DNA from: Cupriavidus alkaliphilus
Lineage (GTDB): Bacteria > Pseudomonadota > Gammaproteobacteria > Burkholderiales > Burkholderiaceae
Assembly: GCF_900094595.1 (NCBI RefSeq)
Contig: NZ_FMAD01000005.1
Coordinates: forward strand, 62,001-126,000
Direction of reading: 5' to 3'
Length of the DNA: 64,000 bases
Positions 26,481 through 29,043 of the stretch are shown piece after piece. The notes under the pieces were generated by a model. The model worked only from the letters and a program-made list of their open reading frames with translations. It had not been told where the DNA came from and did not search any database. Positions within the stretch are counted from its first letter, which is position 1; the number at the start of each line of letters is the position of its first letter. The position numbers and the translations under genes were made by a program.

Positions 26481-27347
26481 ATGACTGACGCCACTTCCGA
26501 ACTCGAACGCCTGCGCGGCTGGATCGGCCGCAGCGAATCGCGCACCGAAACGCTGTCGCCCGAACCGGTCGCCGGCCTGGCCGCCACCTTCGATCTTGAC
26601 GCCGAGGCCATTGCCGCGGGACCGCTGCCGCCGCTGTGGCACTGGCTCTATTTCCTGCCGCGCGCCCCGCAGCACGAACTGGGCCGCGATGGCCACCCCA
26701 CGCTCGGCGGCTTCATGCCGCCGGTGCCGCTGCCGCGCCGCATGTGGGCCGGCAGCGAACTGAGCTTCAGCCATCCGCTGCATATCGGCGATACCGTCAC
26801 GCGTACCTCCACCATCGCCGACGTGCAGTACAAGACCGGCCGCAGCGGCGAACTGTGGTTCGTCGCCGTCGACCATGAACTGACCGTCAACGGCAAGACC
26901 GCGATCAACGAGCGCCACGACATCGTCTACCGCGCCATGCCGGACCCGTCCAAGCCGCAGCCGCCGCGCCCGCGCCTGGAACACACCGCGCAATGGCAAC
27001 GCACGCTGCAGGCCGACGCCGTCATGCTGTTCCGCTATTCCGCGCTGACCTTCAACGGCCACCGCATCCACTACGACCGCAGCTATACGCGCGATGTCGA
27101 AGGCTATCCCGGGCTGGTGGTGCATGGTCCGATGCAGGCCATGCTGATGCTGGACCTGGTGGCACGCGAGCAGCCGCGGGCGCGCGTGAAGCGCTTTGGG
27201 TTCCGGGGGCTGGCGCCGCTGTTTGATCAGGACACCATCACTGTTGGTGGCGCCGCCGATTCGGCGCAGCCGGGGCGGTTGGTGCTGTGGACGGGGGATG
27301 ATGCTGGCGGGCAGGCGATGCAGGGGTGGGCGGAGGTGGAGGGGTAA
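26481..27347 (+). CDS. HTD2/MaoC-type hydratase (itaconyl-CoA or mesaconyl-C4-CoA hydratase-like)
   Basis: A 288-residue double-hotdog protein. The C-terminal hotdog carries the hydratase-2-like motif LFRYSALTFNGHRIHYDRSY (about residues 182-201), with catalytic Asp/Asn and His. The N-terminal half includes GGFMPPVPLPRRMWAGSELSF. Mesaconyl-C4-CoA hydratase of the 3-hydroxypropionate cycle and Pseudomonas itaconyl-CoA hydratase belong here. It closes the five-gene cluster; the product would be citramalyl-CoA, the substrate of the CitE-like lyase before it. Codon usage in the last 150 bases is less GC-rich at third positions. Confidence 0.88.
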   Translation: MTDATSELERLRGWIGRSESRTETLSPEPVAGLAATFDLDAEAIAAGPLPPLWHWLYFLPRAPQHELGRDGHPTLGGFMPPVPLPRRMWAGSELSFSHPLHIGDTVTRTSTIADVQYKTGRSGELWFVAVDHELTVNGKTAINERHDIVYRAMPDPSKPQPPRPRLEHTAQWQRTLQADAVMLFRYSALTFNGHRIHYDRSYTRDVEGYPGLVVHGPMQAMLMLDLVAREQPRARVKRFGFRGLAPLFDQDTITVGGAADSAQPGRLVLWTGDDAGGQAMQGWAEVEG

Positions 27348-27437: not shown

Positions 27438-27773
27438 TTATTGCCCGATCGCCAGGCGAACGGGCTTGCCAATACGGCTCAACATCTCGACCAGTGTGTC
27501 GATGGTGAACTTGGACGTCTTTCGGTTCACCACGTCCGACACGCGCGGACGAGACACCATCAGGATTTCGGCAGCGTCCGCCTGTTTCAGCTGATGCTGC
27601 TCTATCCATGCCACCAGCTCGTCCATGAGCTGTTCCTTCAGCTGCTTGGTGTCGTTGATCTGCTTTTTCGACGCAGCCTGCAGCCGCTTGGCTTCCGCGG
27701 GCGGAAAACCAAGTTCCAGGAACAGGTTGGCGCCCGGCTTGGTGACGTGGCGGATCTGGGTGTCGATCTTCAT
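27438..27773 (-). CDS. higA: XRE-family antitoxin, HigA-like
   Basis: A 111-residue antitoxin with a C-terminal helix-turn-helix: LKQADAAEILMVSRPRVSDVVNRKTSKFTIDTLVEMLSRIGK (about residues 65-106). Its ATG overlaps the stop of the upstream toxin frame (ATGA), the usual toxin-first HigBA order. Xre antitoxins of this type neutralise a RelE/HigB ribosome-dependent RNase and repress their own promoter. The gene is intact although the partner toxin carries a nonsense codon. Base composition is less GC-rich than the flanks, suggesting acquisition. Confidence 0.88.
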   Translation of the reverse strand: MKIDTQIRHVTKPGANLFLELGFPPAEAKRLQAASKKQINDTKQLKEQLMDELVAWIEQHQLKQADAAEILMVSRPRVSDVVNRKTSKFTIDTLVEMLSRIGKPVRLAIGQ

Positions 27774-28108
27774 GGTTTGCCTTTCCTCGCGTTGGCGATA
27801 GCTCGATAGCGAGCTTCGGCGATGCGCTTGTCCGTCAGATTCGTCGCCTGCGACTTCTTCTGGAAGCAATGCAACACGTACACGGCTTCCTCGAACCTTG
27901 CGACATATATCACACGAAATGCGCCGCTCGCATCACGCAGGCGAATTTCGCGGGTGCCCGGTCCCAGGTCATCAAAGGGCTTCCAGTCTTCTGGTTCCAG
28001 TCCCGCCTGGATCCTGCCCAACTGGAACCCCGCCTGCTAGCGGGCCTGCGCGGGGAAAGCCAGCAGGTCGTGGTAGGCTGACCCGACCCAGCGAATCTCT
28101 TTCTCCAT
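27770..28108 (-). pseudogene. higB: HigB/RelE-type (Gp49-like) toxin with in-frame amber codon
   Basis: Reading back from the antitoxin, the same frame continues beyond the apparent start at 28021 through codon 24, which is TAG (28037-28039), to an ATG at 28108. Upstream of the stop the frame gives MEKEIRWVGSAYHDLLAF; downstream it gives QAGFQLGRIQAGLEPEDWKP and ends in the typical FRVIYVARFEEAVYVLHCFQKKSQ toxin core. Both halves fit a full 112-residue phage Gp49/HigB-like toxin, so one C-to-T change of a CAG codon would explain the loss. A TTG restart at 28021 could give an 83-residue remnant. The antitoxin remains intact. Confidence 0.8.
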
Positions 28109-28117
28109 CGCGCGCCT

Positions 28118-28133
28118 GTATAAAATTTTATAC
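28118..28133. promoter_or_regulatory. 16-bp perfect palindrome: toxin-antitoxin promoter/operator
   Basis: GTATAAAATTTTATAC is a perfect palindrome ending ten bases before the toxin ATG on the minus strand. It contains TATAAAAT, a good -10 element, so the antitoxin would cover the promoter. There is no Shine-Dalgarno between it and the ATG, so a leaderless or nearly leaderless mRNA is likely. Confidence 0.75.
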
Positions 28134-28267: not shown

Positions 28268-28618
28268 CTATCCGATCAGCGCGTCCTCAATCCCATCCGC
28301 GACGTCCTCTACCCTTTCAGCCAGCAATCCAAGGGAGGCTCGGCACAGCTCTCGCAAGGCATCCAACGTAGCTGCCTGCAAGGCTACGCTTCCCTCTTCC
28401 TGCGCATCGCATTCGCTGTGGGTCACCAACGTCAGCACGCAGGCTGTCCCTCGCGCAATCGCATCGGCTTGATCCAACAGATTCAATAGCAAGAGCTGTC
28501 GGGGAACAGGCAGCGCATCCTCGCGCGCTGCGCGGCGGGTTTCAGGGCTGAACCGCGAAAGGGAATCATCAAGTCGGAGCGGGATGAAGACGTCGGATTC
28601 GATGGTGGACTGGTGCAT
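28268..28618 (-). CDS. Hypothetical 116-residue helical protein
   Basis: I do not recognise a family. The product is leucine/alanine-rich and acidic (VPRQLLLLNLLDQADAIARG, then LDALRELCRASLGLLAERVEDV), predicted to be two amphipathic helices joined by a loop with EEGS. The ATG at 28618 is preceded by GGAGGTCAACA, an excellent ribosome-binding site, so translation is likely. It sits next to the toxin-antitoxin remnant and has lower GC than the flanks, so this stretch may be an acquired island. The 62-residue gene at 36161 has a loosely similar helical layout. Confidence 0.65.
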   Translation of the reverse strand: MHQSTIESDVFIPLRLDDSLSRFSPETRRAAREDALPVPRQLLLLNLLDQADAIARGTACVLTLVTHSECDAQEEGSVALQAATLDALRELCRASLGLLAERVEDVADGIEDALIG

Positions 28619-28919: not shown

Positions 28920-28945
28920 CCCCTCTCCCGCAAGCGGGAGAGGGG
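28920..28945 (+). repeat. Dispersed palindrome, copy 3 (forward)
   Basis: CCCCTCTCCCGC-AA-GCGGGAGAGGGG followed by AGCAAACCGG. The left flank contains CTTCGTGGATGCGCCGGCCCT, an extended arm shared with other copies. Confidence 0.9.
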
Positions 28946-29019: not shown

Positions 29020-29043
29020 CCCTCTCCCGCTTGCGGGAGAGGG
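29020..29043 (-). repeat. Dispersed palindrome, copy 4 (reverse)
   Basis: CCCTCTCCCGC-TT-GCGGGAGAGGG followed by TTGGGGTGAGGG and ATCAACGAAGC. It is the inverted partner of copy 3, about 100 bp away. Confidence 0.9.

What the first reader, a model, noticed from the sequence alone, without database searches (positions are those of the whole stretch)
27770..28133. HigB-like toxin inactivated by an amber codon while the antitoxin stays intact
The toxin frame runs from ATG 28108 to 27770 with a single TAG at codon 24 (28037-28039). The sequence on both sides fits the toxin family. The antitoxin gene, the ATGA overlap and the operator palindrome are preserved. This looks like a recent loss of the toxin, leaving a free antitoxin that may act as an anti-toxin decoy or regulator. 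A TTG restart at 28021 could still make a short product.
Basis: seen in the sequence. Interest (0 to 1): 0.6.

Follow-up and report, generated by a model that had tools for sequence, protein, structure and literature searches.

The report
Broken bacterial toxin gene, antitoxin kept
A Cupriavidus bacterium carries a toxin-antitoxin gene pair whose toxin gene is cut short by a stop codon while the antidote gene is intact; relatives have lost the same toxin in other ways and kept the antidote, a pattern already known from other bacteria.

Summary
The minus-strand frame 28108-27770 is a GP49-type (PF05973) toxin, read with X at the stop (84.4 bits). It has one in-frame TAG at codon 24 (28037-28039). 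The antitoxin (27438-27773, PF13744), the ATGA overlap and a perfect 16-bp palindrome (28118-28133) are intact. The genus is Cupriavidus. Six of 60 genus genomes hold the antitoxin at this site. Two have an open toxin frame; four have lost it, by this TAG or by deletions, in at least three events. A further genome keeps only a scar. In 398 genomes of the bacterial family, 19 of 62 antitoxin matches have a missing or damaged toxin. All 47 toxins of at least 160 bits have an adjacent antitoxin. None of the 55 tRNA loci found reads UAG. The TAG is not shared by the relatives seen, so recoding is unlikely. This is a decaying addiction module with a surviving antitoxin, a pattern in print for Xanthomonas, Klebsiella and E. 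coli. Protection against related incoming toxins is plausible but untested. The operator is unique in the genome: no sign of a wider regulon.

The parts
27770..28108 (-). toxin pseudogene: 112-codon GP49/PF05973 frame with one in-frame stop
28037..28039 (-). in-frame TAG, codon 24; leaves a 23-residue product
   Evidence: not seen at this codon in the relatives read
27770..28021 (-). possible TTG restart frame, 83 aa, lacking 11 of 29 family-invariant columns
27438..27773 (-). intact antitoxin, 111 aa, PF13744 helix-turn-helix; overlaps the toxin stop by ATGA
27780..27788 (-). Shine-Dalgarno-like GAGGAAAGG, 6 nt before the antitoxin start, inside the last codons of the toxin; retained in the toxin-deleted relatives G020 and G013 and, with one change, G056
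   Evidence: by eye; role inferred
28118..28133 (.). perfect 16-bp palindrome GTATAAAATTTTATAC, presumed operator, covering a TATAAAAT -10-like element (by eye)
   Evidence: the consensus promoter scan found nothing here

Best explanation
A toxin-first type II toxin-antitoxin module of the GP49/PF05973 + HTH_37 kind is decaying in this Cupriavidus. The toxin is inactivated by a nonsense codon at position 24. The intact antitoxin can be made from its own ribosome-binding site, presumably still from the palindrome-covered promoter, which it presumably represses. Because losing the antitoxin first would be lethal, decay goes toxin first, and the orphan antitoxin then persists for a time. In some lineages it persists under purifying selection, most likely because it neutralises related toxins arriving on other DNA (anti-addiction). 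Shown: the stop, the intact antitoxin frame and operator, repeated independent toxin losses in relatives, the one-sidedness of loss in the family surveyed, and no suppressor tRNA found. Inferred: expression of the antitoxin, autorepression, lethality of losing the antitoxin first, and neutralisation of other toxins (I give the last about 0.35).
For: Toxin and antitoxin families. Same site in relatives: G037 and G018 have an open toxin frame; G056 and G020 have deleted toxin plus operator; G013 has deleted most of the toxin but kept the operator; all keep a 111-codon antitoxin. G017 has the G020 junction and has then lost the antitoxin. In 398 family genomes, of 62 antitoxin matches 43 have an uninterrupted toxin, 12 have none and 7 have a damaged one; 47 of 47 toxins of at least 160 bits have an adjacent antitoxin. 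In 80 GTDB loci, 64 have an open toxin frame and 16 are flagged as broken, absent or partial. L054 and L084 share one internal toxin deletion (by eye), and their antitoxins differ by 13 synonymous and 4 amino-acid changes, P = 3e-5 for neutral drift. No CTA anticodon at any of the 55 tRNA loci found. Related toxins exist on 308 plasmid records.
Against: The base call could not be checked against reads or other strains. Neither expression nor neutralisation was tested. Loci with a deleted or damaged toxin have a somewhat higher omega in nearest-neighbour comparisons than paired ones (median 0.080 and 0.084 against 0.051, P = 0.0085 for deleted against paired), so constraint may be partly relaxed; these comparisons also include time before the loss. 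The window antitoxin has 0 synonymous and 2 amino-acid changes unique to it, too few to show selection here. No plasmid toxin is 80% or more identical to the intact relative.
Confidence: 0.8

Rival explanations
1. Passive decay only: the orphan antitoxin has no function and is an intermediate on the way to complete loss of the module. The one-sidedness arises because antitoxin-first loss is lethal. This shares the first half of the best explanation and differs only in denying the antitoxin a role.
For: G017 keeps only a 38-bp scar after the same toxin deletion as G020. G124 has a truncated antitoxin with a stop behind a toxin scar, and G177, G200 and G196 have altered antitoxin starts. Median omega is higher in loci without an intact toxin.
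Against: L054 and L084 antitoxins diverged after a shared toxin deletion with omega 0.08. G056 and G020, both without toxin, differ with omega 0.10, which counts fully only if their deletion is shared.
Confidence: 0.45
2. Sequencing or assembly error: the toxin is intact in the living strain.
For: A single stop in a draft genome (34 contigs); reads not available; the frame is otherwise open.
Against: Sister species lost the same toxin by clear deletions, so loss is common at this site. Nothing else in the frame suggests local error: no frameshift.
Confidence: 0.1
3. The orphan antitoxin has been recruited as a regulator of other genes.
For: It is an intact helix-turn-helix protein; such roles are proposed in print for orphan antitoxins (passages).
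Against: The operator occurs only at this locus, even allowing two mismatches. It is absent at that stringency from the whole genomes of G056 and G020, which keep the antitoxin. Sites of another sequence were not searched for.
Confidence: 0.1
4. The TAG is read through or recoded, and the full toxin is made at a low level.
For: The frame downstream stays open to the normal stop, and omega against G037 is low.
Against: No CTA anticodon at the 55 tRNA loci found. No relative read has a stop at this codon; stops in L092, L102 and L106 lie elsewhere.
Confidence: 0.03

Closest known systems
GP49-domain (PF05973) toxin-first TA modules: A. baumannii higBA, M. tuberculosis Rv2022c-Rv2021c and Rv3182-Rv3183, Tad-Ata (PMC5906591, passages; the name Ata is recalled)
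   Same: Toxin domain family, toxin-first order and, for A. baumannii, an HTH antitoxin that represses its own operon alone and with the toxin.
   Different: Here the toxin has an internal stop. No direct alignment to those named proteins was made; no PDB chain matched an intact relative's toxin at E 0.01.
Toxin loss with antitoxin retention in Xanthomonas ('anti-addiction' reading; PMC4861877, passages)
   Same: Toxin gone or truncated while the antitoxin is kept; toxin loss in at least 7 of 26 systems against 1 antitoxin loss in that paper; same one-sidedness.
   Different: Another genus and a set of TA families. Here one homologous family is followed with breakpoints, operator fate and a codon test.
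Orphan antitoxins in Klebsiella and E. coli (PMC7192599, PMC10790755; passages)
   Same: Antitoxins without a functional partner are abundant; proposed anti-addiction or regulatory roles.
   Different: Those are strain surveys across many families. The E. coli survey also counted many orphan toxins (40,506), unlike the 0 of 47 found here.

Membership tests
GP49/HTH_37 type II toxin-antitoxin module | toxin-frame domain PF05973 | tested here: met
   84.4 bits read with X at the stop; 42 of 42 intact relatives scanned match
GP49/HTH_37 type II toxin-antitoxin module | uninterrupted toxin frame | tested here: not met
   TAG at codon 24
GP49/HTH_37 type II toxin-antitoxin module | toxin first, antitoxin second, adjacent or overlapping, HTH antitoxin | tested here: met
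   ATGA overlap; PF13744, 62.6 bits
GP49/HTH_37 type II toxin-antitoxin module | palindromic operator at the promoter | tested here: met
   16-bp palindrome; core conserved in 64 of 64 open relatives; binding and promoter activity untested, promoter scan empty
GP49/HTH_37 type II toxin-antitoxin module | RelE-like fold of the toxin | tested here: inconclusive
   models of pLDDT 55.8 and 64.4; no Foldseek match at E 0.001 or better, top hits beta-lactamases at E 0.1
GP49/HTH_37 type II toxin-antitoxin module | toxicity and neutralisation | not testable with these tools
   needs bench assay
Canonical HigB (PF09907; accession recalled) | match to that domain | tested here: not met
   only PF05973 reported at E 0.001
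Orphan or anti-addiction antitoxin | intact antitoxin without a functional toxin | tested here: met
   that the toxin is non-functional is inferred from the stop
Orphan or anti-addiction antitoxin | purifying selection after toxin loss | tested here: inconclusive
   met for L054/L084; not assessable for the window
Orphan or anti-addiction antitoxin | neutralises an incoming related toxin | not testable with these tools
   related plasmid toxins exist, below 80% identity
Amber suppression or recoding | tRNA reading UAG | tested here: not met
   no CTA anticodon at 55 of 55 tRNA loci found; the list holds no Ile, Ala(TGC) or Leu(TAA) tRNA, so some tRNAs were missed
Amber suppression or recoding | in-frame stop conserved among relatives | tested here: not met

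The most novel reading that the evidence does not exclude
In this TA family toxin loss is recurrent and one-sided, and the freed antitoxin is kept as an immunity gene, even after its operator and promoter are gone, with deletion breakpoints that repeatedly spare the last toxin codons carrying the antitoxin's ribosome-binding site.
Probability: 0.35. Interest if true: 0.5.

Novelty: new member of a known kind. Interest (0 to 1): 0.3.

Why it matters
By itself it is one more decayed addiction module. The value is the graded series at one site (intact, nonsense, deletion with operator, deletion without operator, scar only) and the one-sided loss in one homologous family. These make the open question of whether orphan antitoxins protect against incoming toxins testable with natural variants.

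Tried and rejected
Recoding or suppression: rejected (no suppressor tRNA found, stop not conserved). Wider regulon of the palindrome: no second site. A three-gene module with the upstream 116-aa gene: rejected, because that gene occurs in 16 of 60 genus genomes and the antitoxin group in 7, and five genomes inspected have the gene without the pair (G055, G038, G049, G024; G025). Solved structures: no chain for the toxin and two HTH chains for the antitoxin. Structure models were too poor to use. PADLOC gave only weak hits of 18 and 20 bits, not pursued; PHROGs matched the toxin of an intact relative to phrog_2523 (101 bits, unknown function) and the antitoxin to HTH families, which adds nothing on function; NCBIfam gave nothing. 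A promoter and terminator scan found nothing. A literature search for Cupriavidus, antitoxin and pseudogene showed nothing on this locus among the 10 listed of 656 (listing only).

Rows dropped or debatable: of the 16 flagged GTDB loci, L050 (only the C-terminus altered), L084 (contig edge), L092 and L102 (stop near the start, restart possible) are debatable. In one search, L266 was left out (translation with a stop when padded), L258 was not included, one of two identical sequences was merged (L046/L051), and only codons 11-109 were compared. The 80 GTDB loci are the best 80 of 187 and were found by antitoxin patterns, so they favour intact antitoxins. In one search the labels 'uninterrupted', 'partial' and 'other' were given by me from the stop and coverage columns; three toxins of 145-151 bits without an adjacent A3 match were treated as another subgroup (G017's has a weak antitoxin match next to it). 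The table was cut ('more matches are not listed') below about 63 bits. In one search the reversed control pattern had a match in one of eight genomes (G013). Genomes are not independent samples.

Full report
What is there. On the minus strand, 28108-27770 is a 112-codon frame ending in TGA, with one internal stop, TAG at 28039-28037, codon 24. With X at the stop it matches PF05973 (Gp49, DUF891) at 84.4 bits, cut-off 23.9, residues 14-101. The next gene, 27773-27438, overlaps it by ATGA and matches PF13744 (HTH_37) at 62.6 bits. Nine bases separate the toxin ATG from a perfect 16-bp palindrome, 28133-28118. It occurs once in the 6,125,055-base genome even with two mismatches. Its 14-bp core, with at most two mismatches, lies upstream of 64 of 64 relatives with open toxin frames (26 perfect); 74 control segments had 6 or more mismatches. 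The first-stage observation is confirmed.

The organism. Three genomes with the module at the same site can be named, because their contig lengths agree with records: Cupriavidus necator UYPR2.512 (G037), C. lacunae S23 (G013) and C. necator SHC 2-3 (G020). The window is from another member of that genus; rpoB identity to the 13 other genomes compared is 93.5-98.1%.

The same site in sister species. Of 60 genus genomes, 7 hold an antitoxin of this group at 222 bits or more. Six of these lie next to the same 116-aa gene; the seventh, G007, has no match to that gene. On the other side the window's next gene (26481-27347) is directly next in G000, G056, G013, G037 and G018; in G020 it lies about 13 kb further on (L019). 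At the site, G037 and G018 have an open toxin frame. G000 (the window) has the TAG. G056 and G020 lack toxin and operator. G013 lacks the DNA matching window 28055-27801 but keeps the operator and the first toxin codons. All six antitoxins are 111 aa with no stop. G017 has the G020 junction and then loses the antitoxin after its first codons. Five inspected genomes with the 116-aa gene have no pair at the site (G055, G038, G049, G024; G025). The G056 junction lies a few bases from that of G020 and may or may not be the same event, so at least three separate toxin losses are needed: the TAG, the G013 deletion and the G020/G017 deletion. In an rpoB tree (supports 64-100) G017 and G020 fall in different groups, so the locus has either decayed since an old ancestor or moved between species.

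Is the loss one-sided? I searched 398 genomes of the bacterial family with a toxin profile (A2) and an antitoxin profile (A3). Pairing by position gave 62 antitoxin matches: 43 with an uninterrupted toxin, 12 with no toxin match, 7 with a toxin carrying a stop, a split or a partial match. One of the 62 (G124) is itself a broken antitoxin; G177, G200 and G196 have altered antitoxin starts. In the other direction, 47 of 47 toxins of 160 bits or more have an adjacent antitoxin. Fifteen of the 19 loci lie outside the genus and were read. The last toxin codons often remain just before the antitoxin (for example G083, G166, G124), G273 lacks the middle of the toxin, G289 keeps a central piece and the end, and G151 and G179 lack the start. 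In the 80 GTDB loci (best 80 of 187, chosen by antitoxin patterns), 64 have an open toxin frame and 16 are flagged as broken, absent or partial; four of the 16 are debatable. In-frame stops in L092, L102 and L106 are at other codons than the window's.

Is it suppression? ARAGORN called a tRNA at each of the 55 tRNA loci found in the genome, none with a CTA anticodon. The list holds no Ile, Ala(TGC) or Leu(TAA) tRNA, so some tRNAs were missed in this draft assembly. With no conserved stop and no suppressor found, readthrough is unlikely.

How old is it? Against G037 the toxin frame has 12 synonymous and 6 amino-acid differences (omega 0.14, stop codon left out) and no frameshift. Changes unique to the window toxin, with three relatives agreeing, are 1 synonymous and 3 amino-acid changes besides the stop; with G037 and G018 alone, 6 and 5. 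That is too few to date the loss, and the first count does not reject neutrality. 'Recent' is likely but not shown.

Is the free antitoxin under selection? L054 and L084 share the same internal toxin deletion (by eye), and their antitoxins differ by 13 synonymous and 4 amino-acid changes, omega 0.08; P = 3e-5 for at least 13 of 17 synonymous at a neutral synonymous share of 0.27. G056 and G020 differ by 24 and 9 (omega 0.10), which counts fully only if their deletion is one event. Against this, nearest-neighbour omega is higher for loci with a deleted toxin (median 0.080, 15 loci) or damaged toxin (0.084, 14 loci) than for paired loci (0.051, 64 loci); P = 0.0085 for deleted against paired. 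The honest reading is purifying selection in at least one clade, perhaps partly relaxed overall, and unknown in the window.

What could the antitoxin do? Of 31 damaged or toxin-less loci scanned, 11 keep the operator core within 600 bases (at most 2 mismatches), among them the window and mostly point-damaged or frameshifted loci; of loci with deletions, G013 (L037) and L041 keep it, L060 and L260 have a 3-mismatch match, and most others have lost it. Of 65 control stretches none had fewer than 5 mismatches. G056 and G020 keep the antitoxin with no such site in the genome at two mismatches. So repression of this operator is not what is being kept in those lineages, and no wider regulon is indicated. 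Related toxins are carried by 308 of 72,556 plasmid records, best 75% identical to the G037 toxin, 66% on two Cupriavidus plasmids. Homologues of the antitoxin are on 18 plasmid records. Seventeen phage records carry a toxin relative below 60% identity. Anti-addiction is therefore possible but has no close target in that collection. In the window genome the only other PF05973 match is weak (23 bits, below the cut-off).

Could the remnant still be toxic? The TTG frame at 28021 (83 aa) starts at residue 30. Eleven of the 29 columns invariant in 42 intact relatives lie before it. I expect no activity; this is an inference. Two AlphaFold models were of low confidence (pLDDT 55.8 and 64.4) and Foldseek returned only chance-level hits, so no structural argument is made.

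What is known. GP49-type modules are toxin-first in the cases studied and described as little similar to the well-studied HigB toxins (PMC5906591, passages). Toxin loss with antitoxin retention is in print: Xanthomonas, at least 7 of 26 systems against one antitoxin loss, with an anti-addiction reading (PMC4861877, passages); Klebsiella, 2,253 orphan antitoxins (PMC7192599, passages); E. coli (PMC10790755, passages); a review (PMC7354431, passages). The finding is therefore a new member of a known kind.

Noticed in passing
window 28268-28618 (-): 116-aa gene upstream of the pair, without any Pfam, NCBIfam, PADLOC or PHROG match, found in 16 of 60 genus genomes, in 12 of them (the window's included) at 84% identity or more; function unknown.
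   Followed up: partly
window 28921-28944 and 29020-29043: REP-like inverted copies of a ccctctcccgc-type palindrome; similar copies occupy the gap in genomes that lack the pair (L117, L122, L124, L119).
   Followed up: partly
L118 (G017) 1905-1942: 38-bp scar of the module: end of the toxin and start codon of the antitoxin, then unrelated DNA.
   Followed up: yes
L019 (G020), 1449-1543 and 1680-2632: In G020 a second copy of the end of the 116-aa gene and the window's downstream gene lie about 13 kb beyond the orphan antitoxin, which suggests a duplication or insertion there.
   Followed up: no
L044, about 420 bases before 3001: In a Lautropia MAG the orphan antitoxin stands behind a frame that looks like a PIN/VapC-type protein (by eye); perhaps a partner swap.
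   Followed up: no
alignments A2 and A3: The antitoxin is more conserved than the toxin across relatives (mean column identity 89% against 80%), which I recall as the reverse of the usual pattern.
   Followed up: no
L054 and L084: Two MAGs (labelled Comamonas and Comamonadaceae) share one internal deletion of the toxin with intact antitoxins.
   Followed up: partly
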